Part shown: positions 1,166-61,586 of the stretch, in pieces | How the letters are laid out: each line of letters opens with the position of its first letter | How positions within the stretch are numbered: position 1 is the stretch's first letter | Assembly (NCBI GenBank): GCA_963920705.1 | Contig: OY987226.1 | Coordinates: forward strand, 32,477,686 to 32,541,685 | Source of the DNA: Odiellus spinosus | Lineage: Eukaryota; Arthropoda; Arachnida; Opiliones; Phalangiidae | Reading direction: 5' to 3' | DNA: 64,000 nt | Notes under the pieces: generated by a model | Told to the model about the DNA's origin: nothing | Seen by the model: the letters and a program-made list of their open reading frames with translations, nothing else | Databases searched by the model: none | Made by a program: the position numbers and the translations under genes

Positions 1166-1329
1166 ACTGGTATTTCTTTGAAAACTCTAGTGACCTTCTA
1201 TATTAAATTTAACGTGAAAATAATAGCTATGGACTTTCAGAAATATTATATAGTGTCCTTCAAAAAATGTCGACAGACTTTTTATATTAGTTTGGTCATA
1301 CTAATGACTGTACATAATATGGGTAATAA

Positions 1330-2134
1330 CAAAAGGGGATAGAAAGTAAAAAGGGCGCTACTGGACTTTGAGTCTAGAACCTGTAATATGGAGAACTACT
1401 GATCTCCCCTCTGAATTCCCAGCCCCCCTTATTGGCGTAAGATCTTTTTGTGCCGTAGCACTAAAATATGAGCGAAGAGGCCGAAAAATAGTTCTAACGC
1501 CACCCAAGAAGTACAGCGTCAAGAAGTAGTTTCTCTAGTGAATATATTTTAATAATCTACAGTTTTAAAGAAATAAATATATAAAACTTAATAACATAAA
1601 CTATAATTTTAATATTTTTGTCCCAAAAATAAATATCCTTATGGTAAATCCACTTGGGCCACGAATGGAAAAAGCTAGAATAGCCACCAGGCGCATCATC
1701 TTCATGTTTTCTAAAGTATATTAAACTGGCCATTCGTATTAATAATTAAGTTTTTCAAAGTAACTTTAGCCTCCATCAGATTTAATATATTTTTCCTTAG
1801 ACCAGATTGATCAATCACACAATTAGCACAATTCCTAATCACTTCCCCGAGGTCGGGAATTCCATGTTTAACCGCCTATGCAAAATGCTTCTCTGTAAAC
1901 TAGCAGACGATATTAACCTTTCCGGCCGATAGGTTCGCTACAATCGGAGAACTACTTACGGGAGAGGAAAAAATCGATATCGTAGTGAGGACCTGTGAGG
2001 TTAGAGTCATCGTGAATTGCCAAAATATAGGGGGGAATGGGGGTAAGTATTTTGTTCTCCATATTTCAGGAACTCTGCAGGTAAAGTCTTGTAGTTTAGG
2101 GAGAGGCGCCCTTTTTACTTTCTATCCCCTTTTG
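1330..2134. mobile_element. MITE-like TIR element with 7-bp TSD GTAATAA
   Basis: Terminal inverted repeats begin CAAAAGGGGATAGAAAGTAA and end with the reverse complement. The perfect 7-bp direct repeat GTAATAA flanks the element at 1323-1329 and 2135-2141. The 805-bp interior has no coding capacity that I can see. It belongs structurally with other elements here that start CA, end TG and have 7-bp duplications (5092, 15064, 52160, 57490, 60557). Confidence 0.85.
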
Positions 2135-2141
2135 GTAATAA

Positions 2142-27911
<25,770 letters not shown>

Positions 27912-30242
27912 TTTATTTTCGTATTTGTTTTTATAATTTTAAATTTCTAAATGCGATCCTTAACAACACTCAATGATTCACTTTTTATTTTTCTTATACA
28001 AAATTTTGAAATTAAATGAATCAAATTATTCTACTTCTACCGAACGAGCTGATTAAGTTTTTTTAAACGCAGATTCGAATCATTTTTGCGTAGTTGTAAA
28101 TATTTTGATATTGCGTGGTGCCAATTTCATGTAGAATTGTTCTTATTCGGAGATTGTACATTACACTGGCAAGAAATGTTATACCGTACCAAAGTTTAGT
28201 GATTTTTTTTAAATAAGTATGAATAGACTTTTTTTCCTTGAATAGAGGTATTTTTAATAATCATAACTAGCTTACAAAACACATTTTGTATTTGTAATAC
28301 TTTTAATAGTACGCGTGGATTTTCAATGTTACACGCCTGCTCACTGAACATTGTAACAAAATGCTTTAGATTATTTCTCTACTGGATTATTGCGTTGAAT
28401 ATCTTAAAATCATTTGATTTATTGCCTCCACTACAGAAAAACTAGAAAGATCATTAAAATGGCCAGGAAACCGTGATTCCTGAAATTGAGCACAATTGGC
28501 TCGCTTACACATATTGGCAATCCTTTTTTGACAGAACAAGATATCAGAAGAAAATAGAGGAAGTGGATTACTGTACCTTTGAGCCATGCAAGTCGTCCCT
28601 TACCCCAGTGTAACAATAGTCATATCACCCTCCACCCATAGAATTTGAATATAGCCAATCGGGACAAAGCTTAAAAAAATCCTCTCTCGGAATATTTTTA
28701 AGGGAAGGCGCCACCATATTGCTTTGTAATCTTCCCTATCAGGGTTCAAAACCTCTGATAAATTAATTTTCAAACTAGAAATTCATAGTAAGTTTTAACA
28801 ATGAAACCGTATAAAATAAGAAGATTAATTAATCACTACTTGCCAGCCGATTTACACCTCGACAGAGTGGAAGACGTGAAGCGGCGTAGCCCCTTATATG
28901 TTACGTCACTCGCGTCACGTGGTAATGCGCGATAAAATCGCCAATCTGTCTCTACCCCCAGGGGTAGTAAATGGCGCGAAAAAAACGAAACGGGACGCCT
29001 CGCGATTAAGGCCAAGCAATCCACTTCCTCTATTTTGTTCTGAAGATATTTAATTACGTCGGCACTTTTTCTAGAATGCTCCATACCATTTTAAGTACGT
29101 TTATAACCCAATAATTTAATTGTTAGTCCTTCAATAAAATAATAAGCCTCTTTGACGGAAGAAAAGATGGGTAGCATCTTTCAGTATCTGGCATACAAAG
29201 GGGGGATGACCCATCGCTATCACTGTGCATGATTACGTAATAACGTAATTGGGTCATCCCAATTTGTATGTCTAATGCTGAAGGATGCCTACCACATTTC
29301 TGTCCTAAAAATGTTTCTATCAGTCTGCCATTATGCAATTAATCAATTTTATTTCAAGAAAACAGAGACAGAATATTTTTGAAACGCATTGCCTTGTAGC
29401 CTGTTTATATACTAAGAGTGATGGGAATTAGTGCCAAGTGTGTGTTTGCGATCAGGCTTTGATGTGATTGATCTTTAGCATCGAGCGGGAGAACGTAAAA
29501 TTGTAAAGAAATGCATCAACCAATAAAATTAATTTCAGCGCTCTTCCCTAGTTCCTCTCTCGAAAAAGCGGTGCGCTTTTACTTGTTCGACAATGATCTG
29601 AAGCACCCAATGGAATTAAATACAACATTGTCAAAATGATAGGTGGGAAGATCCTCGCTACTTCAGCTCTAAAATCGTAAATTTGATGCCATATTATCAA
29701 TACAGGTAACACTGCCCCAATAGTGGGGCTTGCGTCACATCCCGATAAAGTTACTTTCTTTACCCCTTACATTTGGTCACTTAAGTAGAGAAATCTATTA
29801 TAGAATCCAACCTTGGAAAGTGGTTACTCTTACCGCTAAAATATCAGAACTAATAACCAGTATTCTATTTTTTCTTGTTCTATTCAGAAAATTAGTTACT
29901 TGAGGCTAGGTGTATGGGAATTTTTTAATAGCCTCTAGCCACAGCCCATCCTGCCCCCTTGGATCTAGAGGAAGTAAATTTTTGAATTTTATCCCAGGAA
30001 ATTTACTGCGGTGTGAAACCCTTGGATGTTATTCTCCCTAAACTTAACAACGCCGTGATCCTTACCTTCTTAAAAACCAAAGTGGAATTACCCTATTTTA
30101 TTTTTAAGGTCCCTTTAATTTATTCAAGAGTCATTCAAAGTCCTTTCTAAAAAATTTAAACTTTTCAAAATTGCAGGCTGAAACTATTTGCTATAACTCT
30201 ACTTATATCATTCCACCAATAGTTGTGGAAAATTTACCCTTT
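27912..30242. other. Smad4 3' flank
   Basis: Presumed 3' UTR followed by intergenic DNA. No coding exon was recognised on either strand. AATAAA at 29133-29138 is a possible but unproven poly(A) signal. Short imperfect inverted matches around 29190-29270 (GATGACCCAT.../...GGGTCATC) suggest a decayed MITE. Confidence 0.35.
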
Positions 30243-41934: not shown

Positions 41935-42036
41935 TGCACTCAAAAAATAATACTGCAGATATATTTACTAAAGCTTTAAATAAGTCAAACTTTACTTATT
42001 GTCAAAAAAAGTTTTCCATAATGGTTATTAATTTAT

Positions 42037-42322
42037 GTTCATTATGGCTTTCGTACTAAATAAACAAATAACTTTTTTTTGTAAATTAGGAAGCCCTATT
42101 AGTTTTCTAGGCCCTAAATTTCTAAATGAACCAGCCCCCACTATCCAGAAGGAATCTTACGAAGCTTTACTTACGTTCAAAATGACATCAGGGCTCTGAC
42201 GATATATTTCGGGGACTACCTCAAAATTGTAAACAAAAAACGTTTTATAGGCTTGAAACTACTCATAAGAACATCGATTGGGCTTCCTAATTTACGAAAA
42301 AACGTTGAGACCATAATGAACA
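42037..42322. repeat. fold-back repeat with GTAAATTAGGAAGCCC
   Basis: GTAAATTAGGAAGCCC at about 42080-42095 and GGGCTTCCTAATTTAC at about 42280-42295 are exact inverted matches. Weaker pairing (TTCATTATGG/CCATAATGAA) extends outward. No target duplication resolved. Confidence 0.65.
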
Positions 42323-43456
42323 AGTTAAAGTCACATGTCGGAAAACAGTGACAGATGGCGCTTAGGCTTCAGTTATCACATGTATACTACCGGCCAAACT
42401 TTCCCTTGCATTAACGCCAACTCGCAGATGGCGCGTCCCGTCTCTTGATTTTCACTTTTCTCCGAAGAGGCACATCTCTAAAACGCAGCGTATAAGATTA
42501 CTGTTATAAATGCAAAATGTGCCCCGCCCGGGACGAAGTCACTATAAATTCCTATCGCGTTACGAAGAATCGTTTAAAATAGATTACCATCGAACATGTT
42601 TCTTGTTCTGGGAGTAAGTTTAGACCATACTGTATTTCATATTTACAGGGCAGCAGATGTTATAATACACGGGCTAATTCGATTTTCTTTCTCATGCAAT
42701 ATAATTTCTTATAATGACAAAAGGCGGATTTTAACTCAAAAGTCGATTGTGTAATGACCAATGAGGAAGGGAGGCTAACATTGAAAATACATTGTAAACC
42801 CAGGCTATATCACGACCCTTGAAATTAAGTTAGATTTATAAATAATAATTAAAACACCTTTTTAAGTACTCCAATTTTTTAAGAAAATATCAATTTAAAC
42901 TTCTCGGAAAAAATTCAAGAATACTCGGGTTGTCTGTCTTCGTTTTACCCTCACTATTTTAAGTGATCTCATTCGTTCCCCCAAGTGTATATTTTTTTGT
43001 GGCTGTCAAGATGCGTGAGAGAGAGCTTCAAAATCCCTAGACCTTGGCAGAAATTCCGGACAATAAGCCCTGCCTACCTTTTTCCCTCCCCCTTATATTT
43101 AAGCCGCAACTTGGTCCATCGTGATCGCGTACGATGCGAGTCCCAATATGTGTTCTCTTTCGTTTCACTTGCCTTTTAAATCAATCCTACATTAAAATTT
43201 TAAGGAACTTCTGATAAACAAATAAATTTCGCCTCATATAGTCATTATATCTTTTCTAATGATATTTTGAGCTTGAAATAAAAATATATGGCCAGCTGGT
43301 TATCCCTTGGAAGATTGGCGTGTATTTGGTTAAGGTAGACCTCAAACCAATTCGTTACTTTAGTGTGTCTGGTGAAGACGACCTTATTTCTAAGCCAATT
43401 GGAAATTGACTTAAGATTAATTGTTCAAGAATTAATTGTAAAATATATATTTAACT
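42323..43456. other. divergent intergenic region, LYRM1 / receptor
   Basis: Right part of the 2.7-kb gap between the divergent LYRM1 and receptor genes. No promoter motif can be assigned. An in-frame TAA at 43439-43441 lies six codons before the proposed receptor start codon, with no AG acceptor between them. Confidence 0.4.
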
Positions 43457-46400
43457 ATGCCGGTTGCTTTTAACTACCATTTTAAACACCAATATGACAA
43501 CATTACCCAACATCTTCGTTTTCTTGTCATTGAAGTAAGAATTACCGCAAGATTTTTAGGTTTCATTTGTATCGCTCTTGAGGACATATTCCTTAGGTTT
43601 TCGAGATACAGAAGCTTACTTTTAGCTTCCCCTTCGTGAAAAATGAACCTATCTGCCTCCCCTTTCAACGCCGTTTAAGCAGTTTAAGTTGGCTCCTAGG
43701 GCCAATTTGCCTACAGCGACTTGAGATCTCTCGATTGTACTTATAGTGGGAGCTGTAAGGCAGAGTCTTTTATTGCCAAATGTTTAGATATTTAGACATA
43801 TTAGCAATTACGTTAGGAAATCTAACAGGCTATGCCGCCGATAATACCCCAGTTATGATGTGAAAAGTCAGGACTTTTAGATAAATGGTGTCGAAATTTA
43901 CTCATAATGGGGTGCATAAGTCATTCCTTTAATACATTCTCATCGTTCGAATGCCAAAAAACACAAGAAACTATAGAAGATTTAGCTATAGTGTTAAACT
44001 CGTTCGAGGGGCAAACCACTCTAGAAAAATTTGTACACCTGATTCCAGATTAAATTAACTTATTTTTTAAAAGACTGATACTTCATGGTTTAACAACCTC
44101 AAAACTTTAATTTTTGGGGAGCTTTCGAGCACACACGCTCCTTTTCAACGTAAAGGGGTGGGAAGATACGCATTCCTTTCTCGACCGTAAGAACAGGAAA
44201 CGTAAAGGGAAATGAGTCGCCATGGTTTGCCCCCAGATTTCAGGGGTTTATTTCCCCTTTTTTGTTTATAAAAATAAACCTGAATAGTGTTGTTAAAAAA
44301 TTTTTAGTTGTATTAGCTGGGTTGAAAAGGAGCGTGTGTGCTCGAAAGCTCCCCAAAAATTAAAGTTTTGAGCTTGTTAAACCATGAAGTATCACTCTTT
44401 TAAAAAATAAGTTAATTTAATTTATATTTAACCATGGTCAATAAATTTAATATTAATGATTCCAGATTTTTTTTATTTTTGATTCTCAGTGATTCCGAAT
44501 CATTTCGCGTGATTCCTGATTGATTCGTCTTTCACATTGATTATCATGATTCAGAATAAATTCTCGTGATTCCGAATCGATTCGTGTGATTCCGAATCAA
44601 TACGTGTGATTCCGAATCAATTCGCGTGATTCCAAATCAATTCTCTTGATTCCGAATCGATTCGCGATTCATTGATTCCTGTGATTCCGAATCGATTCTC
44701 GTGATTCCAAATCAATTCTCGTGATTCCGAATCGATTCGCGTGATTCCGAATTGATTCCATTTAGTTTGTACACCTGATTCCAAGAGTGGTTTGCCCCTC
44801 GAACTCGTTGGCTGTTCCACAGAATGTTAGAACAATGGAAAGCCCTACTCAACGCACTAAGAAATGACATTTATAAATTGTATATCTATACATTTTAGGA
44901 TTTATTAACAAAATTATTTTAATTCATCCAAGTGAATCACCAAGATAACTAAATTACAATAGGAACTTAATCCGCATTATTTATTAATGTTGAGACTTTT
45001 TACCAAAAAATAAGTTGATGAAACTTCCGTCCCTAACATAGACCCGAAAAAAAAAAAAAAAAAAAAAAAAAAAAGAAACGGTTTCCTTTAAAAAAGGCGT
45101 TCGACCCTAACATTGGCATAAATGGCTTTCGCGTTTCGAGATTTACCTGCAGGCGTTGTCAGAATAATACTTTGCCAATATTTTCAACTGTATTCTGTAT
45201 TCGCAATCATATATTTTTTCAAGTTTTTCGTGTGGATAAGGCTGTCATATTCAGACAAAAAATGATTAATTCTTCTTATTACGGAGGAAACATTCCTCTC
45301 CTTGATATTGCAAAACTATTCTACATTCATAATACAAAATTAGCATAATCCCTACCCCTACCCCTGTGAGTTGTTCTGGCTCTTTTGTTTCGACGATTTG
45401 ACTGTTTCAAAATAAATGGTTTGGAAGTCGTTGATTTTGAATAAATTTCGTCATGTTTTAGTTTTTAATAATTTGTGTGTTATACGTCTTTGTTTTTCCC
45501 CTGGACATACTGCGTGGAAAATTGATTTATTTTAAAAATATTTAAACTTTAAATATTTTTTTCAAAGGTTGGGATTTTAGTTTTCGTATGTTGAGTTAAG
45601 TAAAGACATTTGAACTTTATTATTGTAGAATCCGCCTTATGTGGAAAAATTAAAAACTCGCTATGAGTTTCCAAAGGGTTATTTCAAGGAACTGTTCAAT
45701 TACGTCGTCAAATCATTAAATTTAACGTAAATATATTACTTTAACTAAGCTAAATATGAAATTAATTTGTAATTCAAACCCAATCTTGTAGTTTTTTTAA
45801 AGGTGAATATTTTCGGAATACGCTAAGGATTTACCAAATGCTTAAGAAAAATGTAAGTACTAAAAATGAGAACTAATTTTGTGGGTAGGTCAAAGGTTTT
45901 CAAATCAGCCATTTCAGAGTGTTTTTGATTAGGGGATTTTAAATTAAATCCTTTTCTAGTCTAACCGAGCCTAATCCGCTCCCAAGATAATGAAAAAGAT
46001 GTTATGAATATCCATTTTCGTAGCGCTGTTCTATAAAACAATTCTTGAAGAAAAACCTTTACCCGAGGAAAAATACAAAATCAAATGACCCGAGCATTTG
46101 CCTTCGATCATCTGAAAAATCTAATGGCTAGCATATACCTATTACCACGCACCCGATAGTAAAAGGTTACGTTCTTCTGAAGATATATACATTAAAGTCA
46201 ATCATTAAACAAACGACAATGAACTATTTAATTTTAAAATTAAGAATGTCGCGAGTCGAGATGAGATAGACGATATTTTCGAAGCTCATTGCTACGAGAT
46301 GATAATACCAAAGAATTATTTCAAAACGAAATAATAAAGCAGAAAAACCAATTTAAATTGGTGTCATCAACATCAACCACGTAGAAAATCATGAAGTCTT

Positions 46401-49400
46401 ATCATTTCGACTCTCGATTGCAATTTCGTCTTCGTAACTGAACTTGAGCTGATAAATTCGTGGTTTGAAGAAGTCGTCTTTTTCTAATACATATTTTATT
46501 CTTTATGTTATATTGTTTATTACTGAAATATCGAATAACATTTTCAGACACCAGTAATATATTTATTGAGTAAAAATCAATTGTTACTGTAAGAGTTTAG
46601 ACGTCTCAGAATTTCGCTTTATTAGTTAACGTCTTTAGCGGAGTCTCTGTTGTAATCTGAGATATTGATGATAAGAGGTTCAATTGCACTAGCATTCTGC
46701 AAGTACGTTCTCGTGGTGTAATTCTCTGTAGTTGCGTGTTTAATGGCCAATACCATGCGTAGTTATTCCCTATTACCCAAATCAACTCAATTTGGCAAAG
46801 CAGGCATTGATATGGCAAAGTCTCACTACTTTGTGACCTCTACTTTGAGGATCGAAATAGACAAGATTTCTAAAAGTTCTTGATTTGTGGCTTTTATGTC
46901 GTAAAGTTCCGCTATAAATTAGGTTCTGTCATATTTGAATGTCGTGGTCGTCTGCATGTCACATTTACGACTTGGCCACAAAATAGAGTCCATAAATATG
47001 GTTTCAGTTTCATGTTGGGAAAAATTTCCTAAGAAAACCATTCCTTAAATCATTTAGAGTTTTGTCTTTTCCAGAAGGGAATTTTGAACTACCAACGTTT
47101 CGATGTGGTAGGATGTACCCACGTCTCGTCTTTGAAAATAACGTATCGATATTTGTTACTTTTCTTAAACGAGAACCTAATTTTTCCGCAGGGTCGCCAA
47201 GGCCCATGAATTTGACCTCAAAAGTGAAAAAGACATTGACTATCTCGAAGTCCGAGTCGTCTGTTTAACAGTTACGCAATAACTTACAACCCATTGTGAC
47301 CGATAATGTCTTCACCGTTTCCCTGGATCCATTTCTATCGTAACAGCGATGAACGCGTATTATCCACGGTGATCTACCCCAAGTCTCTTCATCGATGCCT
47401 AACTCGAGCCTCTCGTTTACGAGCCGACTGTTTCCTATTACGTGTGCTGCGGCTTCAGATACGTCGCAATTGGGCCAGATGGGAAAACATCAAAAATTGT
47501 GACAAAAAGGTCGGGGAAGAGAAGTTCCTTGAGTACAAATGTGGACCAAAATCATTTCATATTTGGGTATATTCTTGTTCAATTCGGGTTATTACATTTG
47601 ATCGAATTCTGTTGGAAATGTCCATTTTTGGATTATTTTTGACCAAAATCGAAATTTCATCTTTATTTGGAAAGCTGTTTTCTTTGTTTATTCTATGGGA
47701 GCACATTGAAATGAAATGCAAATCTGAATTTTGACAAAGGCCGAATTGAATGCCTGTTTACTTTAACTATAATTATCTTCGAAAAAAATTTGTTAAAATT
47801 TGAAAATTGTATTATACGAAAAAAAACACAAGGTACATAAGTAAAAAAATTGATTTTTATTTATCCAAAATGAAACAAGAGGTATCCAGACAGTCTGGAT
47901 AAACGTGGAGTGATGGTCAATTGTGTACTCGGTAACCACGTAAAAAAAGTAAATGATTCTTACCCGAGCAAAAAAAATAAATAAAAAAATAAATAAATGG
48001 AGAAAGGAGTCTTCGTATGATGGCGCCAGGGACTCTTTACAAGCTTCCACCAGAGAAAGAGAACTGTCGAGGAAGTAGGAACATGGGTGTCGGATACACG
48101 AAAATTGGTGTCGGAAACACGAAAAATCTGCCCTTTTTTAGGAGCGACACTAAGGGGAGTAAAAGCACTGAAATCTACGTTCCTTCCCCAACTACATCTG
48201 TATTTCGAGCTATCTTTCTATAATGTTGAGTGATGGCTGATGATGTCTCACTCCAAAAGGAGAGTTTCGAACCGCGGTTCATTATTCAATCTGTATGTTA
48301 AAATTTTAATCTTAACCCGATGATATTGCACAAATCAATTGAAGGAAAAAGTTGCGAAGTATTGTAGTTTCAATCTATTGATGGTCAATACCACAGTGAG
48401 GGCCATTAAACACGCTACCCAAGAGAACTGGACATCGAGGTCCTAGTTGTGAGAATACTGGGAAAAAGATCTTTCTATCGAACCGAAATTTAACACCGGC
48501 CTTATCATTAATATGCAAGACCACCGCAAAAATACCGATAAATATTTTAATTAATGCTCGATTTTTTAATTATTTAATTTTGATATATATTGCAAAAAGG
48601 CGTCTTTATTCTGGTATTCTCTTTGGCTGAAGGGAGTATAAAAAATAAAATAATTGAAATATATACTGTTTCAACAAATACATATTTGAGTATGATATTT
48701 TGAATAATTAATAAAACATTATAATAAACTTTTGCAGGGAACTGATATAAATTTCAACAATGAACTTATCAGATTTAACTCATCACTAATGGAAAACAAA
48801 TTTGAGTTTTCACCCCCAATAATAACGAATCGATATACTATTTTATCTTCGAGCAATAAAAACGAAGAGGATTCCCAGTATTTTTCACTGCACACTTTGG
48901 ATATGGCAGTAAGTATGTAAATACTAACCTTGCATTATTAGTTTCAAGAAATTAATAAAACTTAAAGGATTAAAATGTCAAACCACTTCAAAGTTTCAAT
49001 ATTCCGCGTTACGGATATTGGTCACTTCAAATTTCTCACTATTTGCACTTCGGTCTAATGGTTTAAGTCGCACTTTCAAAACGTGAATTTAAATATGTTT
49101 GGAACCATGCAATGATAATTATTGGCACGTGATAGACATTTCGTTTACTGTCCAATCATGTATAACTAGTTCTTTCTCTATTTCAAGGTATTTAACAGAG
49201 TTTGGGCACGTACCTATTAGACGTAGGGTGGTGGCGGGTAATTCCGTCCACTTTGGTTTAAAAATGTGAATCTTTAATTTGGGTTGCTGAAATTAAACGA
49301 AAAAGGACTTATTGTAGACACTGATAAACGCCCGGTCAGAAAAAAAATTCTTTCAAGGCCATGGGACAATGTTCGGGTAAGATACGACTATAATTAACCA

Positions 49401-52400
49401 AGTAGCAATTTACTCAGATTAAATTAATGCCAATTTAAGAGAATGAAGCTTTTTATGGCTCCGGAAAAAAGGATTTAAAACAATCACGAAAATTGTGCAG
49501 ATACGGACCAAATATCTCTCGAAAACCCAGAACTTTAGCTACAAAATACGCGTCTCCGGTCTAATCTTGACTCCGTATTTAATTATTTATCGAAGATTAA
49601 AAGAAACTACCGACAGAGGCTAATTCCGTCCACTCGAAACAACGTTTAAAGTTAACTTCAAAATACCTAAGTAAAACGCGAATTTGCGAACTCTAAAATC
49701 ATTCACGATTGACAATTTCAAAGCAGACAGCATTTTTCTCGCTTTTTCCGCAGTCTTTCAGGGCTGGAAATATTTTTAATACAAATTCAGTATAGAGGGC
49801 GGTAGTGGGACAAATTGAAGAATAGGTCCCGGTAGCCAAAATTAAAAATAAAATACTTTTTCTAAAAGAGAAAAATGCGAGAAAAATTATGGTGTAAAAA
49901 TTATTTGGGGCCGACAATTATTAACAAAGACATGGACGTTTCAATTTCCCCGTGTTGCGCCATCGTGGTGCAAGGGAGTAAACGGCGGTAGACAGAGGGA
50001 TACGGCTAGGAGAAAGGGGAGGGGGGTTTGACGGTGAAGGTTGGTGGTCGAAGCTTACTTTAAAGGGTAGGTGACTTGAAATTTGAAATTAGAAAATGTT
50101 TTTTTGTTTTTTTTCCAAAAAAAAATATTTTTAGGTTAGGTTAGGTTCGGTTCGGTTAGGTTAGGTTCGGTTAGGTTAGGTTAGGTTAGGTTATTCCAAA
50201 AATTTGTCTCCTTTCCTTTAAAATAATCCTTCGTTATTTTTACGAACCTTGGCGGTATCCCTCTAATCTACCGCTGTTTCCTCCCTCGAAACGCGATGGC
50301 GCAAAACGGGAAAATGGCCAATTTGAAACGTACATATCTTTGTTGATAATTGTCGGCCCCAAATAATTTTGACACCATAATTTTTCTCGCATTTTTCTCT
50401 TTTTTAAAAAAAAAAAAAAAAATAAAAAATGGCTACCGGGACCTATTCTTCAAAACTCCCCGGTAGGGTTTCATAAAATGGCGCGGTTTTTACTGTGTGG
50501 GCGTTTTAGTTGCCTTTCTTTTCTTTTCGGTTTTTGTTTAGAGCTAGGGCCCTAAGGCCATTACAGCTCTTGAATGTAAATTCTTCAAGAGAGAGGACAG
50601 TATATAGTGTGTACAAATAACTTATACAATTAAGTTGATATAGAAACATAGTAAGTTTAAAATAGGATTAGGTTAGGTAAAAGTTTTGTATAAATTTTTA
50701 GGTTCTTCAAATTCAAATTTTTAAATTTTAAATTTTAAATTTTTAAATTGATATTTTAGTTTAAGTTAAGTTAAATTAAGTTAAAAATTAGGATAAGTTA
50801 AATTAGTTACTAAGTAGGTTAAGTTAGATTAAGTTAATAATTAGGGTAAGCTAAATTGAGTTAATATTTAGATTAAGTTAAATTAAGTTAATATTACTTT
50901 GAAAAATGTTGTTTAAGCTTAAGTTTAAATGTATTAATAGAGGGAGAGTTAACCACCTCGGAGGGTAGTGAATTCAAAAGGGGGACAACTCGATAAAAGA
51001 AGGAATTCTTTACGATATTTAACCTAGGTCTTTGAATAAATAGTTTGCGTGAATGGCCGCGAGTGATTCCTGTATTGGGAGTGAAGTAAGGTTGGGAGGG
51101 ATCAGACAGGATGGTATATAGTAGAGTTAAGTCCACCATATCCCATCTTGTGGACAGGGTGGGCCAACGAAGGGCTTCCAATCTATCCTGACGGGGCCTG
51201 CCTCTCAACGACGGAGGAATCTTGGTAGTGCGGCGCTGAACCAGTTCTAATATAGGTTATGGATAGCGGATCCAGGAAGGAAAAATTTATGTTTAGGGCG
51301 CCAACAATACTACTCAGCCTGGACGCGATAGTGGCACAGTGTTTGGAGGAAGATAAGTTGGATGATACTATTACACCAAGATCACGATGGTCAGCTATAC
51401 GCGTGAGACGAGAGCCATTTAGAAAATAAGGGGAGAGTGTATTGGCGGTTGAAACCTTGGCGGTTATTCTAAGGTGGTAGGATTTATTGCAGTTAAAGGA
51501 CATACCGTTACGGGCAGCTCAATGATGCAGCGTATCAAGGTCTTGTTGAAGAAGCTGGACATCTGTGTAAGATTTAATTACACGGTATAATTTTGATCGT
51601 CAGCGTAAAGCACGATAAAGCTTAATACTGAGGATATTAGAAAAAGGAGGGGGCCTAGGACACTCCCCTGAGAGACGCCACTAGTAACCCTAACTGGGTC
51701 GCTGAGGGTACCCGCGATCGAAACCCTCTGAGTACGCTCCCCAAGGTAGACCTTTGAAACTGTAAAATATTGTGAATTTTATAAATGGACGTTGTCTGAG
51801 AATTAGACGCTACTTATCTACGGGCTGACGGGTATTTCCCTAAGGCCGGACGGAATTACACTCTTCTGGACGGAATTGGCCGCGTCGACTGACTTTGAAA
51901 AACGTCTCGTATCCTTTAGACCAATCAAAGTTATTGAAAGCAAAGTAGCTTGAAATACGCGTAAAAGTTAAATTATACCTAAATTAACTAAGTTAAGATA
52001 TACCTAAATTGGACACGGTTAACATTGGGGGAGTTTTCTTGGTGATTTTATAAAAAGCGGGTGGAATTACCCGATGCACCATAGACGAATAAGCATTATA
52101 CTTGAAAATATAGAGGTTAGTAAGTGGAGGCTTGAGTAATCTAACGAAGTTAGTTGGTTCATGGAGGGTAGAAAGAAGAGGAGTAGAAGGCTTGGCTTGG
52201 AGTGTTCTCGCTTGACAATTTGCATCTCAACTTCCGGTATGCGCGCGAGTTTTTCTATTATATCATAGAGGCTCTGATTGGTTCATTGGCGATGAACCGG
52301 AAGTAGAAAGACAAATTTTTCAAATAACACAAAAAAGCGAGAACACTAAAATTGCCTTGCCAAAGGCTGGCCTTCTACTCCTCTTCTTTCTAACCTCTAT

Positions 52401-55400
52401 GGTTGGTTCTCATTTATATCTAAATTAGCATATTCGAGATATTAGGCTGAGATGTAAGTTTCAATCGAGAGTCAGAGTAATTACCGAATAGAACTCGTAC
52501 AAGCTTTATCCCTGATAATCGTTTACTTTCTGTGTAATTCGATGTTTATAATTTCATTATCTCACAGACATGGATGCTTTTGGGAGCCTGTTTGATTTGT
52601 ATAACCGCAATTTATTATCGTACTGAAAACGTCGAAAATGACATGTTTCGCAATCCACTTTCGACTAAAAGATGGCGCTTCTTCGAATATCTATGTAAAA
52701 TATCATTATACCTTCTTCTTAAAGGTGAATTTTCAAGTTCGAGTGGGGTGAACAGCAACGCGAGACTGCGTGTTGGTAAACCTAGAAAACTCACATTTGT
52801 CGGTCTAGCCCAATGCAATTAGTGTTGGACCTAGAAAAAATTATGGGCAAGCAAATTCCAACTGAACTATAAAGTCATTGTGGTTTTTGTTAAGGGGAAG
52901 CTCTCCGGATTTCCGGGTGGGGAAGACCTTCAAAAATAGCTGCCATTTTGGAAATTTCGGTTTTTCCAGTTCAATTAAAATTGGACCATGAACAAATTAG
53001 GAACAAGCAAATTCTAACGGAAATATAAAGTCCTGAAATTGGCCGCCAATTAGAAAATTATCGTTTTTCGGCAAAATCGTAGTTCATATTAAAAAAAACT
53101 GTTCGAATATTAAATGGATATGATTACATCATTTATTAAACAGAATTTGATTCGATATCATAAGACTTTCCGTTCGAAAAATAGACAGATTTTAATGATA
53201 ACCCATTTAGAATTTTCCATCTTTTGTTTAATTTTTTCTTTTAAAAAATGGGAAAGAGCACGTGACATATGCTATAAATATATAGGAACAGAAATGATAC
53301 TCTTTATGCAAGTTATATTACATAAAAATGTCATTTCCATCTTCGGATACATCTTAATACAAGAGGCCCCATAGCACTCCCCACACATCGCAGAACATTC
53401 CATATAAACTGTTCGTCACGAACATGTTTGTCACAGTTTGTGGCTTTACAACAAAAAACAAAATAGTTTCAATATGCTTGCAGGTGCTGATGAATTCTCA
53501 AAATTAATGGGTGTATTGCACTTATTTAGTTTCCATAGGGATCTAGTATCGTTTCTAGGAAAAAAGGTTTCTAATACAAACAAACTCTAAAACGGACAAA
53601 AATTTCTAAAAGACCGTCTACAATTAATACTTTCAAGTATTTCAAAACAATATAATAGAATCGTGCAAAGTCAAGAACGAAAATTATGGTGTATCACTAA
53701 ATCTTGCTAAAATTAGTCTATTTTTCGAATGCTAACTCGTACGCGATGATTAAGATGGGATTTTAAGGTAATTATGAAGAGGGATTTTAAGGTTTAATTA
53801 TTAATTTTATAGAACATATAAAAAGATTTTGGGATTTCGACCAAAATGTACGGGATTTTGTGTCCAAAACCCATCTCCATTTAATATTAGAATTTTTTTT
53901 TAATATGAGATACGATTTTGCCGTTAAATCCGAAAAGACCAAATTCTCAAAATGGAGGCCATTTTTCCGGAATTTCGGAAATGTTTTCCCTTAACAAGAA
54001 GAACCACTAGGACTTTACATCTCCGTTGAAATTGCTTGTCCCTAAATTGTTTAAGGTCAAATTCTAATTGCACAGGAAAAACCCAAATTTCCAAAATGTT
54101 GGCCTTTTTTGGTGGTCTTCCTCCGCCCGGAAGTTCGGGAATTTTTTTCCCTTAACAAGAACCACCAGGACTTGAAATTTCCGTTCGTATTTGCTTGTTC
54201 CTAATTTCTTGTAGGTCGAAGAGTTTTTTCGTCCATTACACCATTTGGGCTAATCAGGTCCTCGATTGTTTTGGCATGGTGGCCAACGAAATATTTAAAC
54301 TTTTTCACCCTGGCGCATCGGACGTTTTCAATTATTGCCCTATAAAATAAAAATTAGTCTATAATCAAAGATTACGAAGGAATTGTTACTTTCATTTGGC
54401 TGAAGTGGCAGATACTTTGAATAAAAGGAAGAAACGAATAGAGATGAAGGAGTTTTAAATAACAGTGACTGTGCGAGAAAGCTTTCGATCTTGTAAGGCA
54501 TTCGTCAGTCTAAATCCACAGTAGTTTTTACAAGCGATATAGCTGAGAAAATCAATTAAATAAAATAGGTTTGCGTCCGCTTGCGCAGTTTCCCACTTGC
54601 GAATTTTCATTTGCGCAGTTTCCCACTTGCGAATTTTCATTTGCGCAGTAGCCATTTGCGCGGTTTCCCATTTGCGCATTTCCATTTGCGCAGTTTTTCA
54701 TTTGCGCGGTTTTTCATTTGCGCAGTTTTTCATTTGTGCAGTTTTTCATTTGCGCAATTTGCCATTCGAACTGTCCACAAGAGGGACAGGATAGTTCGAG
54801 TGATTAACTAATCAAACCTAACTTATAATATAACAAGAGGGACAGGCTAATTCGAGTGATTAACTAACCTAACGTAACCGAACATAACCTGCAATTAAAC
54901 AGTGCGCAAATGGAAACTGCGGAAATGGAAACCTGCGGAAATGAAAAACTGCGCAAAAGGAAATGCGCTTGTGGGAACTGCGCAATTGGAGCCTTACCAA
55001 AATAATAAAAAAGCGAAAATGATATTATTCTATTTCCAATTAAATAATTCACTTTTACACTGAGAAAAGACCTTACCGGTTGATTTTACGCTAAGCCTCA
55101 TCCGGGGGTAATTTATTTTGAAAGTAAAGAATAGGAATAATTTAAGTTCTAAAAAATAAATCATTAAAAAAAGATTAAAATCCACAAATACGGCTTTAAA
55201 TATTTTTTTGCAAACTAACACCAACCGTGTTTCTTCCAAATTATTGGAAACTAATATTGACACAATTCTAGTTGATTGGCAATAAACCAATTTAGGGGTT
55301 TGTTTGGTTAGTTAAGGAATTAAAATATTTTACCAAATATAAAACATTAAAATTGAAAATAATTCAAACTTTGTTTTAAACTATCTTATTTGGTTGATTT

Positions 55401-58400
55401 AGAGTCTTTTAGAATATTTCACGTTAACGTGAAATTGACCCGTAATTAAAGGTAGGTTATACATGACAAAAGCTATCTTTTAAAGAGAGTTGGGCGAGTC
55501 ACGTACAAAGTAATATAAAATAAGATACCTCTTTGTAAGTTCTGTTCTTCAATGGGTTCTTGGTCTCGCTTAACTGTTAATCATTATGACATTATACAGG
55601 TAATAGGAGCAGTAGACTAATATAATATTATTTACTACGTTAGGTTATGACATTGGTGGAATACTGAAGAGCTTGGGTCGACGGTTCCTTATTTGCATAT
55701 GGGGCTTTGGCGTTTTTCTTCTCATTAGCGTAATAACAAGTTTCATTGTTGGTCGTATGGTCATACCAAGCGGTTCGGAACCAATCGACAAACTCTCTGA
55801 CATTCTAAAATATCCAAATATTCGTCCATTAATTTTCCTGGAAAATTCATACGAAGCTTTTTATATCAGAGTAAGTTAAAATATGTTCAAAGAGCTTAAA
55901 GCAAAAATAAATTCTTAAAGGAAAAATATGGGAATAGAGCTATCTCATTCTGATACTCTTCACCACTGAAACGTTATACCACTCGGTAGACATAAAATTT
56001 CATAATCATACTTGAATTGACATAAATTAATGATTTGACGAGGGCAACGTGTTTAGCTTTAGTGTGGCTACTACTTTATCCACGGCGTCGGCTTTGTGTA
56101 CGAAGACGATAATCGTCATTAAGACGAAAACATATATCTACTGAAAAACCAAGTAACGCCAATAAATAACGTTATTTTTTTAATTGAAATGCTAATTTTA
56201 TTAATTTAAACAATTTAAATAATGAATTACATGCTTAAACACATCATCAATGCATGGAATTATATACATTTTTTCACATTGGCCCACGCCAGGATTCGAA
56301 CCCTGGGGTGGGAGATGTGGCTAAAAATAAACAGCAAATGAGTGGGAGCGTTTTTTCACGCAACATATTTCGGTACGGTCCCGCTGTTATTTAGAGGAAT
56401 ACATATACACCGCCTTTGTAAACGAACTGAGGCACCTGACTCAGGGGAGAGATGTTACAAACTGTCGTCATTCCATCCCGATTTCTTTTCAAAGCTGACA
56501 AGCTGTGACTGGCCAAAAAGGGTTTGGTAGGAATAATCGGCTCTTTCCCATCTCTTCTCGGTTCTATAGGCGATTCACATTGGCAGTGAACAAAATTAAG
56601 CGGCTCTAATACATGAATGATTGCTTGTTTACTATTCGAATGGTTAATATAATAGATTGTTGGACAACTAGATGATTTTAAAGAGGTGAATGATTAATAA
56701 AGTTTCACATGACGTTATAAAAAATCTCTAAATCAGTGGCTTTTTAAAGAAAAATCAGACTGGGCCAATTATTTTGCGTTATTGTCGTTGTATATTAATT
56801 AATGTACAGCGTTGCCAGATCAAAAGTCTAAAATTATAGTACCTGGTTCCAAAAATTATCGATTTTTCTAGAAAATTATAGTACGCTATATTTTTGGCGC
56901 GAATTTTGAATTCAAATGCAAATATATATGACGTCGCCCACGAAAATGTTATTTTGTTATGAACAAACTCTTGAGCAGCCTATACTTCACTGGCAGTGGC
57001 ACGCGGGGAACCTAGCGGCAGTTAAAACACAACTTATATCCCTATTGCCAAGGCAACTCGGAGCTCTCGTTCTAGCCTATCACACGCTTTGCCTCTATGG
57101 AAATACAAAAGCAATAGACTGTGGATCCCTAAGAGGGGAGTAATACTAAGAGTGGGCCATGTGACGAAGCACAAAGTTGACTAAAATTAAAGTTTTCGAT
57201 ACAAAATTTACTATTTAAAAATTATCGCACAATTATCGGAAAAATGCACAAATTATCGCAAAAAGCGTACTATATAGTACGCCGTTGAAATTATAGTACG
57301 CCCAGAATTTTTTCTTGAAATTATCGAAATGTACTATAATTATAGTACGTCTGGCAACGCTGTTAATGTAGTATCCAAATCTAATACAAACGGAAGTGAA
57401 TTGATTTCAACCCTTTGGTGTTGAAGACGTATAGTAATCAAAATCCATAGCAAACGCAATATTAAAGTTGCCCAACTATATATTATAACCAGAAGCCGAT
57501 GAAACCCTCCTTTGAAGTCTAATATGTCCCATATAGCGCTCCTCTGTATGGGTAAAATTCCCAATTTTACGAGATCGGAGGGGTCCTACATCATACCCCC
57601 TGTCTACGAAAAATTGGAAATTCTCTCTCTCCACAAACGACGACGTTTTTTTGACGAACTTCAAGGCTACTAGAGATATTCGCTCGACGAACCCCCGCTC
57701 CGAAAATATCTACCGTTAGTAGGCGTGCGAATCGCGCTTTTTGAAACTAACCCATATAGAGAGGGGTAGACAAGATCCGGGAGAAATAGACTTCAAAGGA
57801 GGGTTTCATCGGCTTCTGTTATAACTAATAGTTTCTGAAGTAACTGAAGTGGTAACCTAATACCTACTTATAATCATTTTGCGTATACAGACAGCAAAGG
57901 ACAAGAATCTGCAACAATTATGGAAACACATTCTACGTCGCGAAGGTCTCGTGGAAGATTATAATTCATTTGAATTCTTGGTTGATCAAATTAAGTATAT
58001 TATTGAAAGAAAAACGGTTGTTATCAAAGACGAAGAGTTTTTGCACAATTTTGTCAACCACCACTGCAGAAGGGACACTCATTTTTACTTTGCCAAGGGC
58101 GGATTCCTTCCGACTCACACTGGCATGGCAATATTTAAATCTTTGCCCATTAAGTTCAAGGAAGACTTCATTTCACGGTAATGTCATCCATACGCAGGAC
58201 TAAGCAAGAGAATATATAGAGTTAGGATGCACCAATAGGCGCCATAGAACAACGTTAAGCTTTGGTTAGCACTAAAATATAAAACCCTTTCACGCCAAGT
58301 TTATTATGAAGACCCCTCCCTTACCTACAGATTTAGTAAGGCCATTTTATGCAATAATGTATTCGAGGATTTCAACTTTGAAATTACAATTTTACGCCTT

Positions 58401-58635
58401 CAGAATATTGCGATACAAAGATTCAGGCCTGATGAAACTAGCTTTGGATGGACCACCAATTTATCATCGTCCCAATTGCGAGGACTATGATGCAGTCGAA
58501 GAAGAAGAAACACCCTTGAGTATTTACGACTTGCTATTCATACATCGTGTCTGGCTCTACGGCGTTTTTATTTCCTTCTGTACTCTTCTTATCGAAATGG
58601 CTTCATGCGTTATTTTAAAAAAGAAATATTATTAA
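43457..58635 (+). CDS. ionotropic receptor (iGluR-related chemoreceptor), 8 coding exons
   Basis: Exons 43457-43534, 45629-45726, 45792-45852, 48738-48908, 52568-52724, 55644-55870, 57891-58177 and 58404-58635 join with GT-AG introns in phases 0,2,0,0,1,0,2 and encode 436 residues. Order: S1 opening LRFLVIENPPYV, GYFKELFNYVVKSLNLT and FEFSPP; first membrane segment about 138-155; re-entrant region about 180-200; third membrane segment about 203-228 (LICIWGFGVFLLISVITSF); S2 at about 229-405; last membrane segment about 409-431 after PLSIYDLLFIHRVW. This is the ionotropic receptor layout, a ligand-gated cation channel of sensory dendrites in arthropods. The S1 arginine next to FSPP and the SYTANLAAF pore motif are not kept, so amino-acid ligands are unlikely. 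No amino-terminal domain or signal peptide is encoded. The start and intactness are less certain than the family. Confidence 0.86.
44051..44421. repeat. fold-back nested in the 44005 MITE
   Basis: Arms of about 95 bp contain AAATTAACTTATTTTTTAAA, then GGGGAGCTTTCGAGCACACA on the left and the complement on the right. A central spacer of about 180 bp includes ACGTAAAGGG repeats. It interrupts the sequence after GATTCCAGATT, which is continuous in the short copy. Confidence 0.8.
44464..44760. repeat. minisatellite, about 19-20 bp unit CGTGATTCCGAATCGATT
   Basis: About fifteen imperfect units, varying mainly at GATTC/AATTC and CGTG/CTTG. The short sister element has only GATTCGTTTGATTCC at this place, so the array grew within the transposon. 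The minus-strand open frame over it is an artefact of the repeat. Confidence 0.88.
45853..48737 (+). other. receptor intron 3
   Basis: 2.9-kb intron. It contains the possible transposase remnant at about 47000-47490. The plus-strand open frames at 47306-47734 lie partly over it in antisense and are not supported. The rest is AT-rich with no recognised feature. Confidence 0.4.
47000..47490 (-). pseudogene. possible decayed DDE transposase fragment
   Basis: Minus-strand translation contains RYVIFKDETWVHPTTSKRW, resembling the DET-W segment of Tc1/mariner-like (DDE_3) transposases. The surrounding frame is broken by several stops, and adjoining segments such as FKIPFWK and NMKLKPYLW lie in shifting frames. 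Only a short motif supports this; the superfamily is a guess. Confidence 0.35.
49798..50468. mobile_element. fold-back element carrying telomere-like repeats at its centre
   Basis: Arms of about 220 bp share AAAAATGCGAGAAAAATTAT, TTATTTGGGGCCGACAATTA and ACCGCCGTTT-type blocks in inverted order. The apex is the TTAGG-rich block at 50131-50190. No TSD assigned. Confidence 0.78.
50131..50190 (+). repeat. interstitial telomere-type repeat, (TTAGG)9 with three TTCGG units
   Basis: Twelve consecutive 5-bp units: nine TTAGG and three TTCGG. TTAGG is the common arthropod telomere repeat. It lies inside a transposon palindrome rather than at a chromosome end, so it is probably part of the element or a product of repair. 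Confidence 0.9.
50530..51752 (-). mobile_element. non-LTR retrotransposon fragment (antisense), 3' part of reverse transcriptase ORF
   Basis: Near-identical on the minus strand to the 62-64 kb copy from the YLGERTQRVSIAG region onward, so it is 5'-truncated at about 51752. Relative to that copy it lacks about 20 bp before the YADD box, one base just after it, and about 75 bp near 51255, so it is not functional. It does include the ORF end (stop at about 50894) and a 3' tail of TTAAGTT-type simple repeats, ending near the GGGCCCTAGCTC block at about 50545. Confidence 0.88.
52160..52401. mobile_element. MITE with 7-bp TSD GTTGGTT
   Basis: Inverted ends start CATGGAGGGTAGAAAGAAGA and close with TCTTCTTTCTAACCTCTATG. 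The perfect duplication GTTGGTT lies at 52153-52159 and 52402-52408. It ends 166 bp before receptor exon 5. Confidence 0.88.
52825..54218. repeat. 1.4-kb inverted repeat with duplicated right arm
   Basis: Left-arm blocks CTTCCGGATTTCC-like, AACAAGCAAATTC and GGCAAAATCGTA recur inverted on the right, where the AACAAGAA(C)CACTAGGACTT block occurs twice (about 53995 and 54160). Non-coding; it lies in receptor intron 5. Confidence 0.65.
54574..54990. repeat. two opposed arrays of a TTTGCGCAGTTTCC-type unit
   Basis: The left array, about 54574-54770, repeats CATTTGCGCAGTTTT with a 14-27 bp period. The right array, about 54894-54990, carries the complement (AACTGCGCAAATGGAAA). The spacer has the direct repeat AAGAGGGACAGG...TTCGAGTGATTAACTAA. 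Open frames over it are repeat artefacts. Confidence 0.85.
56807..57362. mobile_element. hAT-like MITE with 8-bp TSD TTAATGTA
   Basis: Inverted ends CAGCGTTGCCAGA and TCTGGCAACGCTG. The perfect duplication TTAATGTA lies at 56799-56806 and 57363-57370. The interior repeats AAATTATAGTAC/GTACTATAATTAT and AATTATCG motifs. The terminal CAGCGTTGCCA and 8-bp duplication fit the hAT superfamily. It lies in receptor intron 6. Confidence 0.92.
57490..57818. mobile_element. MITE with 7-bp TSD TTATAAC
   Basis: Inverted ends CAGAAGCCGATGAAACCCTC and reverse complement, identical over about 35 bp. The perfect duplication TTATAAC lies at 57483-57489 and 57819-57825. It ends 72 bp before receptor exon 7, close to the branch-point zone. 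Confidence 0.92.
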
Positions 58636-61586
58636 ATCATATCCTGATTGATATATTTTTAGTATCGTTATACGGAGAGTACAACGACCGATTCAAAATT
58701 ATGATGACAAAAAAAAAAAAGAAAAAAAAAAACATTGTGCATATATGGTTGTACCCTAAAAATATTCGCTGCTTTGCCAAACGCAAAGCGGGGAGCGAAC
58801 AAAACACTTTCATTTCAGATGTTTCATTCGTGTGCAGCGAGCTTATATATATATAATTTTTCTGAAATTATCTGGTCGGTTAAATTTCACTTAAAGTAAG
58901 CCTGGTTTAAATGAGTCACTAGCAGGTGTTACCTAGATAATGAGAATTTATAGGTTGTACATGGTTGTCGAAATCTATAGCTCTAGTGTAAATTTTCTCA
59001 TTAGCTATATTCAGCCAGGGAGGAGTAGAAGAGGAGAAGCAAAGTGAGACGATGTAGCATCCTACACCATGGGCCTAAACTCCCCCAACGGGAGAATGGG
59101 CGTTGACAAAGAAAAGGGGGATATACTTGGTTAGTTTTGTCACGTAGTTTTCTGCTGAGTTATGCACTCGATATTGCACGCCCTCTCTCGATAAAACACA
59201 ACCGGTTTTTTACAAAATTATCCAAGCAAGGAGGATCAAACCACGCGTGCATAATATATTTTACCATAAGAAAAATAATTATTTTTCTTATGATTTTACT
59301 TATTTCGACGGATATTTCACTAATGACGATGGATCATAATTATTACAAATTAAAACAAGGTCCTAGATATCGTCCCGGTTAATTGTATTTACCTATTCAA
59401 GACATTTTTCATAGTTCCTTGTTGGTTTAGGAATATCCTGTCCGTTTGAGTGTTTAGATTTTTTAATCCTATATATACAATATTTTACCATTTTAAATGC
59501 GCTAAATAAAATAAATCGAAACTAATCTCTAAACCTTCCCACGCTTTGCTTCGCGCTTAAGCCTTGTACTTCTGGCCAGGGTCTGCCGCAATTCCAGCTC
59601 TGAGGCAACGCTCACGAGAGGGCAGTTTGTCGTGCCCATTTACTGGAAATCGGAAGAAGCTTGCCATGTCACCCACGTGATCAGCTTTAACCAAGTTTTT
59701 CCCCCATTCTCCTTCTTTCCCGTTGTGGGAGGTAGGTTTATCAGTTGGTAGTCTTTGCCCCTCCTTCCCCATCCTCCTTGATTCAGCTGAAACGGGAAAA
59801 ATTCCAATGTTCATGTATACGCTCCATATAATGTTATCTCTATATCTTGGATACCCTGTTAACGCGCCTTTAACTCATCTTTATTATGCATTTTTTATGT
59901 TTGATACCTGTGTTACTGTGTAAACGCACCTTCACTTAAAGTACGCGCGATTGTCTAAAATATAAATCTTAAATATCTTCTAAATTATCTCTTATAATGA
60001 ATTAATTTCTCGGCTATATTATTAATAAGATTAACTTAAACCATTTTTAATATTTTTCATTATAATAAAAATTAATATTGCGTTTCATTTCCCTAAACGA
60101 TATCACAACATAAAGCTCATTTGCCTTCATTCAAAAAAGGTAGTAAATAAACCAACCGTTCAAGCGGTGTGGACATGAAGTTGGGAGGACGATTCGTGAA
60201 TCTTGATTATAGGTACGTGGTAGGCAACGCAAACCTAGGATGGGCGATGTTTGGAGAGTGGAAAGTTGATGTGGACCATATTCTTAGTGAGGGACGCCTC
60301 GCTAATGTAGCCCGGAAACTGGAGGTTGGACTTTGGTGTGGGGATGGTCGGAATTTTTCTTCCTTCCCCTATGAAAAACCAAGGAAGATGAATAGTAAGG
60401 AACGGCCGCCTCACGTTATAACTTGTGTCGTACAAGCTCAGCTTCTGCTTCCAATTCCCCCTTTGTTTCCCCCCTTGGCTGATACATATTTTCAAATGCG
60501 CATCCTTTTTCGCGCACTCTACGTGTAACACTCGTGACTCCTTGCTAGAGAAGGTGCATAGCCTCCTCGATCACGCACTTCGGCTGCGCTCGCGCTATAT
60601 AGGGAGCGCAGCCGAAGCGCGTGATCGAGGAGGCTATGGAAGGAGCGACCTATGGATTTTCTCAGCAGGGGTGCCAATTTACAATAAGGTTTCGATTCCA
60701 CCACTGTTTGCAGCGCGTAAAAATTACCTTATCCGTTATCCTTACGAATAGTTTATTTATGGGGATATTGAGCGCCTCGCTTTATGCGCGCTGACCATCA
60801 CGTTTGGTGACCATTCGCCCGCAGCTGGTTCACTCTCTGTGGTTCACCTTAATTTGGCAGCTCGTATAAACCTACTCTTTCCTTTATTTCTAAGAATTGT
60901 TTACTTAGAAATGTAGGGAGGGTTATTGAAAGAGGGTCCCCAACTTCATGTTGTACGAAATTTGTCACCTGCGAATAAAAGGATGACCTTGTACCATTAC
61001 AATCTGTGAGAGAGTGGACTAAAACATTCCCCAAGCCCACTCTTCCAGGAAAATCCGAAATTATTCAGGTGCAGCTAAGGCGCCTAGGATATAACCTGCT
61101 GTAATTTGATACGAGATGATGTTGGTATGTCACGTGAGTGCGCACCAAAAAAGCGCAGTTAGCTTCTTTGGACACAGAAGCGAGAGAGGAAACTACGTCA
61201 TCTTCAGACATTTCACGGACGGGTTCTGCTATACTTGTGGCTATTCCTTACCCTTCATTTTCCTTGGAAAAACTCCCCTTGAAGTGAAATTTTTCTAGAG
61301 GGATTTCGAAGTCTAGAAACTGAAGGTAATATTATTGAAGGGAGTTCGAGCTTCTTTTTTTGTGAAGAAAATTCTCCTTCCCAAAAAAAGAAGGAGACTT
61401 GCCAAAGAAGGAAGATTTCCTTCTTTTCTCCCGATTGGAGAGAGCCAAGGAGAGAAATATTTTGGGGGGGTGGGTGGCCCCAGAAGGCAGGGTGGTTTCT
61501 AGAGAATGGAAAGAAGTAACATAATGCACCTTCTTTATCTCTCGATAGTGAATAGAAACGAGTATTAGAGTAGGCTCAGTAGGTAG
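58636..61586. other. receptor 3' flank and intergenic region
   Basis: Presumed 3' UTR, then non-coding DNA. An A-rich run lies near 58710-58731. A 119-codon open frame at 60169-60528 (+) matches no family I know, overlaps an antisense frame and is not supported. The hairpin at 60557-60638 and a dispersed repeat at about 61069-61210 (partner at 33889) lie here. Confidence 0.4.
60557..60638. mobile_element. 82-bp near-perfect hairpin, candidate mini-MITE (7-bp TSD, one mismatch)
   Basis: Arms of 35 bp start CATAGCCTCCTCGATCACGC and are complementary at all but one position; the loop is about 12 bp (CGCTATATAGG). Flanks GAAGGTG (60550-60556) and GAAGGAG (60639-60645) match at 6 of 7. It is GC-rich against an AT-rich background. 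Confidence 0.7.

What the first reader, a model, noticed from the sequence alone, without database searches (positions are those of the whole stretch)
1330..60638. A structural superfamily of MITEs: 5'-CA...TG-3' ends and 7-bp target duplications
Five elements with unrelated sequences share one architecture. They are 1330-2134 (GTAATAA), 5092-5393 (CTAAAAT), 15064-15397 (GTAATAG), 52160-52401 (GTTGGTT) and 57490-57818 (TTATAAC). Each TSD is a perfect 7-mer and each element begins CA and ends TG. The hairpin at 60557 fits with one mismatch. A 7-bp TSD is uncommon; P-like (7-8 bp) and some rarer superfamilies are candidates. One transposase type with relaxed end recognition, or several related ones, would have to mobilise them.
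Basis: partly seen in the sequence, partly recalled or inferred. Interest (0 to 1): 0.75.

Follow-up and report, generated by a model that had tools for sequence, protein, structure and literature searches.

The report
P-element miniature transposons with 7-bp duplications
Five short mobile DNA pieces that look unrelated share one insertion signature and are best read as stripped-down relatives of P elements, one of them cut down from a full-length P-type element elsewhere in the genome; some P elements of this genome seem to have their enzyme split between two genes.

Summary
All five elements begin CA, end TG and have inverted ends and perfect 7-bp target duplications. Each is a repeat family, with 103 to 13,619 counted ends. 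Copy pairs confirm 7 bp: A 8 of 8, B 14 of 19, C 7 of 10, D 10 of 12; no B, C or D pair matched at 8. Flanks of B-E and of the hairpin family F share a palindromic target, NTNNNAN: 48.5% of 476 flanks, against 4-9% at shifted offsets. Galileo, a P-superfamily transposon, has such a target and 7-bp duplications.

P transposases abound in this genome. Of 17 regions examined, nine P elements have mapped ends, seven with 7-bp and two with 8-bp duplications. MITE A (1330-2134) is an internal deletion of L047, a 5,951-bp element with a P-type transposase domain. Parents of B-E were not found. The 60557 hairpin is a bare pair of ends of a sixth such family.

P-derived MITEs are known. Less expected: in one P clade the transposase's C-terminal domain lies in a separate convergent gene on the opposite strand.

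The parts
1323..1329 (.). Target duplication GTAATAA, left copy, of MITE A (right copy 2135-2141)
1330..2134 (.). MITE A, 805 bp; internal-deletion derivative of a 5,951-bp element with a P-type transposase domain (L047)
5092..5393 (.). MITE B, 302 bp, duplication CTAAAAT at 5085-5091 and 5394-5400
15064..15397 (.). MITE C, 334 bp, duplication GTAATAG at 15057-15063 and 15398-15404
52160..52401 (.). MITE D, 242 bp, duplication GTTGGTT at 52153-52159 and 52402-52408; imperfect inverted ends
57490..57818 (.). MITE E, 329 bp, duplication TTATAAC at 57483-57489 and 57819-57825; the family with most counted ends (6,770 + 6,849)
60557..60638 (.). Hairpin F, 82 bp: two ends of a longer CA/TG, 7-bp-duplication family with nothing between them
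28545..29042 (.).
60380..61266 (.). Element H, 887 bp, CA/TG, duplication GAAAAAC; hairpin F lies inside it; copies in the genome not searched

Best explanation
The elements are non-autonomous cut-and-paste transposons (MITEs) of the P superfamily. Each family keeps about 30 bp of inverted ends plus some subterminal DNA of a P element that had lost its gene. A P transposase supplied in trans cuts at the CA/TG ends and inserts the element into a palindromic site close to RTNNNAY with a 7-bp stagger, which gap filling turns into the 7-bp duplication. Several P lineages, not one enzyme, probably serve the different families. Shown: architecture, copy number, 7-bp length, shared target, P elements with the same signature in the genome, and descent of A from an element with a P-type transposase domain. 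Inferred: the enzymatic steps (from what is known of P elements), that P transposases mobilised B-E, and that the 43-82 bp F hairpins are end-to-end remnants made by internal deletion.
For: Ends and duplications; copies: (control patterns 0). Length 7 in copies. Shared palindromic target T2/A6: B 53%, C 60%, D 49%, E 51%, F 29% of distinct flanks, with 1-13% at shifted offsets. P transposases: PF21787 has 386 candidates, 150 scored, all over the cut-off; PF21787 + PF21788 in L021, L027, L024, L038 and L083; the L021 protein matches solved P transposase 6p5a, E 8.1e-20. P elements with mapped ends, 9 of 17 regions tested: 7-bp duplications in L021, L024, L027, L028, L032, L038, L083; 8-bp in L010, L015. 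Direct descent: L047, 5,951 bp, duplication GTAAAAC; its two ends align with MITE A positions 1-313 (88%) and 316-805 (81%), in effect the whole MITE; its 433-aa ORF hits PF21787 at 1.7e-10. Literature: Galileo is a P-superfamily element with 7-bp duplications, GTAGTAC in D. buzzatii, GTATTAC in D. willistoni, GTANTAC over six genomes (passages of PMC2775673 and PMC4168063).
Against: No parent was found for B, C, D or E: blastn against the loci held found MITE copies, or pieces of copies, and for C two longer relatives without a P transposase. Those are L049, a C-ended pair with an LTR-retrotransposon insertion (RVT_1 and aspartyl protease), and L050, 2.5 kb with no ORF of 100 aa. Inverted ends are not alike between MITE families beyond CA. 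MITE ends resemble the nine P ends more than any of 300 shuffles does, but the excess is small (mean score 2.53 against 1.95). Two of nine mapped P elements start CG, not CA, and two have 8-bp duplications; eight of 17 regions gave no ends. The target match of F is weaker (29%). No THAP or GTP-binding domain was detected in the three L047 ORFs scanned.
Confidence: 0.9

Rival explanations
1. The five belong to different superfamilies that happen to share CA/TG ends and a 7-bp stagger.
For: Inverted ends are unrelated between families; no parent was found for B-E.
Against: Four families plus F share one palindromic target motif in the same register, which chance convergence would hardly give; A derives from an element with a P-type transposase domain.
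Confidence: 0.06
2. They are hAT MITEs (CA-type ends) whose 8-bp duplications were misread as 7 bp.
For: hAT ends often start CA (recalled, no call).
Against: With boundaries fixed by the inverted ends, 50 of 66 B, C, D and F pairs match exactly at 7 and none at 8.
Confidence: 0.01
3. A single promiscuous P transposase with relaxed end recognition moved all families.
For: Similar target and the same stagger in all families.
Against: Many diverged P lineages with different ends are present (tree); A matches its own parent family over its whole length.
Confidence: 0.08

Closest known systems
P-MITE families of Anopheles gambiae (PMC1562414; abstract parts and passages seen)
   Same: MITEs with terminal and subterminal sequence of P elements of the same genome; P inverted ends of 27-31 bp; several P subfamilies with their own MITEs.
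   Different: 8-bp duplications there, 7-bp here; 5-310 copies per family there, while here E alone has 13,619 counted ends.
Galileo of Drosophila, P superfamily (PMC2775673, PMC4168063; passages seen)
   Same: 7-bp duplications (a few of 8 bp) and a palindromic GTANTAC-like target.
   Different: Galileo has long, internally repetitive inverted ends (abstract of PMC3573991 in the listing); here the terminal inverted stretches are about 22-38 bp.
Canonical P element and zebrafish THAP9 transposon (PMC7776569; passages seen)
   Same: 31-bp inverted ends in P; transposase with THAP, RNase H, GTP-binding insertion and C-terminal domains in one protein; internally deleted copies.
   Different: 8-bp duplications. 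In one clade here the C-terminal domain is encoded on the opposite strand.

Membership tests
P superfamily | Autonomous partner encodes a P-type transposase (RNase H with GTP-binding insertion) | tested here: inconclusive
   For MITE A: L047 433-aa ORF hits the RNase H part, PF21787, at 1.7e-10; the GTP-binding part was not detected. For B-E no partner was found.
P superfamily | Inverted ends of roughly 30 bp, CA...TG | tested here: met
   Exact runs 26-33 bp in A, B, C, E; D 28 of 30. Mapped P elements of this genome: CA in 7 of 9, CG in 2.
P superfamily | 7- or 8-bp target duplication | tested here: met
   7 bp in the MITE families; mapped P elements 7 bp in 7 of 9, 8 bp in 2 of 9.
P superfamily (Galileo) | Palindromic GTANTAC-like target | tested here: met
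   B, C, D, E and, less strongly, F, with shifted-offset control; published consensus. A was too small a sample for this test (8 sites).
Galileo | Long, internally repetitive inverted ends | tested here: not met
   Terminal inverted stretches are short. Not filed as Galileo.
Canonical Drosophila P element | 8-bp duplication | tested here: not met
   7 bp in the MITEs.
hAT | 8-bp duplication and hAT transposase (recalled) | tested here: not met
   0 of 66 pairs match at 8 bp. The transposase half was not tested.
MITE of a P element | Subterminal sequence shared with a P element in the same genome | tested here: inconclusive
   Met for A over its full length; not found for B, C, D, E with the loci held.

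The most novel reading that the evidence does not exclude
Among the P elements of this genome that make 7-bp duplications, one clade has a split transposase. The plus-strand gene carries the RNase H and GTP-binding parts up to the catalytic glutamate region (with THAP in L021). The C-terminal domain is a separate, convergent gene on the opposite strand and is kept under purifying selection. The enzyme would then work as two proteins made from facing genes, and MITEs of these families would need both in trans. Whether L047, the parent of MITE A, is also split is undecided.
Probability: 0.75. Interest if true: 0.75.

Novelty: new member of a known kind. Interest (0 to 1): 0.5.

Why it matters
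It gives one superfamily, one target rule and, for one family, an identified parent to a set of repeats that look unrelated, including a family with thousands of copies. It shows 7-bp and 8-bp P lineages side by side in one genome, so what sets the stagger can be studied by comparing their transposases. The split-transposase clade, if confirmed, would be a natural test of what the P transposase C-terminal domain does, because evolution has separated it from the catalytic chain.

Tried and rejected
Rejected: chance; 8-bp duplications; end similarity as proof of one transposase; L048 and L049 as autonomous copies, since they are a MITE A and a C-ended element with LTR-retrotransposon insertions. 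The 17 eight-base hits are mostly palindromes such as AATCGATT, and I set them aside as extensions of inverted repeats. My first joining of the L038 region had the wrong orientation (there called '801', no ends found) and was redone. One search's reversed-sequence control is invalid.

Not found: ends for L013, L018, L031, L033, L034, L036, L082, L084; parents of B-E; the opposite-strand C-terminal gene in L018 and L036. L047's minus strand has short stretches that resemble the C-terminal motif, but their scores do not stand out from shuffles (99 and 12 of 300 reach them), so no claim is made. ORF2 hits no Pfam family over its cut-off. A first profile comparison of ORF2 with only the L024/L032/L038 C-termini was weak (33.7%, E 4.4e-4); a later one with five C-termini (L010, L031, L038, L013, L034) was better. 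Paper searches, seen as listings only, listed no paper that describes a split P transposase; one search returned none. Of the searches on P MITEs with 7-bp duplications, one search listed ten papers, several on Galileo, and one search returned none. All cover only the open-licence library.

Full report
OBSERVATION. A systematic scan of the window for exact 7-bp duplications around inverted ends gives nine hits. Seven are CA-ended: the five, plus 28545-29042 and 60380-61266. Twenty Markov sequences of the same length give none.

COPIES AND LENGTH. The window is G000:C2:32477686-32541685 of an unnamed 443-Mb genome. End searches counted, forward + reverse, A 108 + 115 (up to three mismatches), D 64 + 39, E 6,770 + 6,849, B 508 + 498, C 88 + 86, all four exact, and F 402 + 401 (one mismatch). 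The controls were 0. Searches also asked for a non-T base nine positions upstream, so they undercount, and the numbers are not on one scale. About 100 places were listed per search, and the pair counts of B, C, D and F come from those lists. Exact 7-bp duplications: A 8 of 8, B 14 of 19, C 7 of 10, D 10 of 12, E 2 of 2, one being the window copy, F 19 of 25. None of the 66 pairs matched at 8. Three of the five B misses share one left flank, and three of the six F misses have near-identical flanks, so some are probably copies of one event.

TARGET. Pooling distinct flanks of B, C, D, E and F (476), position 2 of the duplication is T and position 6 is A in 48.5%; the same spacing at other offsets gives 9.0, 6.1 and 3.8%. 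The motif is palindromic, roughly RTNNNAY, in B, C, D and E; F is weaker (29%). Galileo, a P-superfamily element, makes 7-bp duplications with consensus GTAGTAC, GTATTAC or GTANTAC (passages), and three D. willistoni copies have 8 bp. The Drosophila P element makes 8 bp (passages).

P ELEMENTS IN THIS GENOME. The P-element RNase H model PF21787 finds 386 candidates; 150 were scored and all passed the cut-off. I looked for ends in 17 regions chosen from those. Nine have inverted ends with duplications: L021 (5,670 bp, CATAGAC, ATATTAT), L027 (5,725, CATGGAC, ACTACAC), L028 (4,609, CATCGAC, GTTAAAC), L032 (4,140, CACTACC, ATCCGAC), L083 (6,182, CATAGAC, ATAGAGC), L024 (4,581, CGTTGCC, GTTTATA), L038 (3,777, CGGTGCC, ATTATAC), and with 8 bp L010 (4,426, CATAGAT, GTTATAAC) and L015 (5,207, CATAGAT, CGCCAACC). 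Eight gave none. Of the seven 7-bp sites, four have both T2 and A6, and three have one of the two (L047 set aside). In the tree the two 8-bp elements fall in other groups than the 7-bp ones, but the deepest forks are weak. Pfam finds RNase H and GTP-binding parts in L021, L027, L024, L038 and L083, and THAP in L021 and L038.

PARENT OF MITE A. Among the listed ends of A, one pair lies 5,951 bp apart (L047), with duplication GTAAAAC. Its two ends align to MITE A positions 1-313 at 88% and 316-805 at 81%, and it carries a 433-aa ORF with PF21787 at 1.7e-10. MITE A is therefore an internal-deletion derivative of such an element. Another long pair of A ends (L048) is a MITE A with an LTR-retrotransposon insertion. 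Parents of B-E were not found.

THE HAIRPIN. F ends also bound longer elements, 1,263 to 3,514 bp in the listed pairs. The 3,514-bp one (L071) has F ends in its middle too and looks like two copies joined. In the five fetched no ORF exceeds 147 aa, and two ORFs scanned hit no Pfam family. Elsewhere F occurs as bare hairpins of 82, 76, 74, 48 and 43 bp; those of 82, 48 and 43 bp have exact 7-bp duplications, and the 82-bp one, L076, is a perfect palindrome. The different lengths suggest separate internal deletions at each site (inferred). The window copy lies inside element H.

SPLIT TRANSPOSASE. P elements L021, L027, L028 and L083 carry a second ORF on the strand opposite the transposase, downstream of it and facing it. 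A model of these four ORFs finds opposite-strand ORFs in four elements that were not used to build it: L022, L030, L033 and L035 (4e-24, 7.4e-44, 5.8e-12, 1e-11). L030 is a fairly close relative of L028 and L022 a more distant one of L027, so these are not fully independent. In L022, L030 and L033 the plus-strand catalytic region lies just upstream. In other lineages the same model hits the end of the transposase on its own strand: L031 1.2e-9 and L013 4e-5, L038 8e-4, L010 0.0019 and L015 0.014; L009 (0.044) and L012 (0.42) are weaker. A joint model of 12 rows places this domain on the transposase strand in 12 loci (L009, L010, L012, L013, L015, L024, L031, L032, L034, L038, L082, L084; L034 and L082 are near-identical copies) and on the opposite strand in 8. 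Twelve of these 20 loci are in the model itself. Profile-profile comparison of four ORF2 sequences with five same-strand C-termini gives 93% and E 3.5e-7; an earlier one against three C-termini gave 33.7% and E 4.4e-4. Of nine same-strand C-termini, six beat all 300 of their shuffles, and the other three are reached by 1, 2 and 4. L010's same-strand ORF hits RNase H C-terminal PF21789 and THAP9 C-terminal PF22824, while L027's plus-strand ORF hits PF21789 only. Between L028 and L030, dN/dS is 0.20 for ORF2 (211 codons) and 0.10 for ORF1 (541 codons), with dS of 1.3-1.6, close to saturation. So ORF2 is most simply the transposase's C-terminal domain turned round into its own gene and kept functional. 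It was not found in L018 or L036 of the same clade, and L047 is undecided. The listings of searches show no description of this.

VERDICT. Its P-like guess is right for A and best supported for the rest. P-derived MITEs are described in Anopheles (passages), so the window elements are new members of a known kind. The split-transposase clade is the more surprising part, but it lies outside the window.

Noticed in passing
L083:1989-4007 (+) and 5306-6760 (-); also L021, L022, L027, L028, L030, L033, L035: P elements whose transposase C-terminal domain is encoded by a separate convergent gene on the opposite strand.
   Followed up: partly
window 28545-29042 and 60380-61266: Two more CA/TG elements with exact 7-bp duplications; hairpin F sits inside the second.
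   Followed up: partly
L076-L080: Bare hairpins of F ends, 43-82 bp, of different lengths at different sites, three of them with exact duplications; L076 is a perfect palindrome.
   Followed up: partly
L048:1085-3910 (-): The LTR retrotransposon inserted in this MITE A copy has a copia-type reverse transcriptase (RVT_2) and, in the same ORF, a methyl-CpG binding domain (PF01429, 6.5e-16).
   Followed up: no
L049, L075, L043/L027/L044: Other nested insertions: an RVT_1 LTR retrotransposon in a C-ended element, a MITE B in an F element, a P element in what looks like an E copy.
   Followed up: no
window 62023-63717 (+) and 50894-51518 (-): Reverse transcriptase ORF (PF00078) and two ORF fragments on the other strand, the second of which shares long stretches with it by eye.
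   Followed up: no
window 10229-10531 and 15877-16271: Inverted-repeat elements bounded by the palindrome AATCGATT, another repeat family.
   Followed up: no
L010, L015: 8-bp-duplication P elements in the same genome as 7-bp ones, in other branches of the transposase tree.
   Followed up: partly
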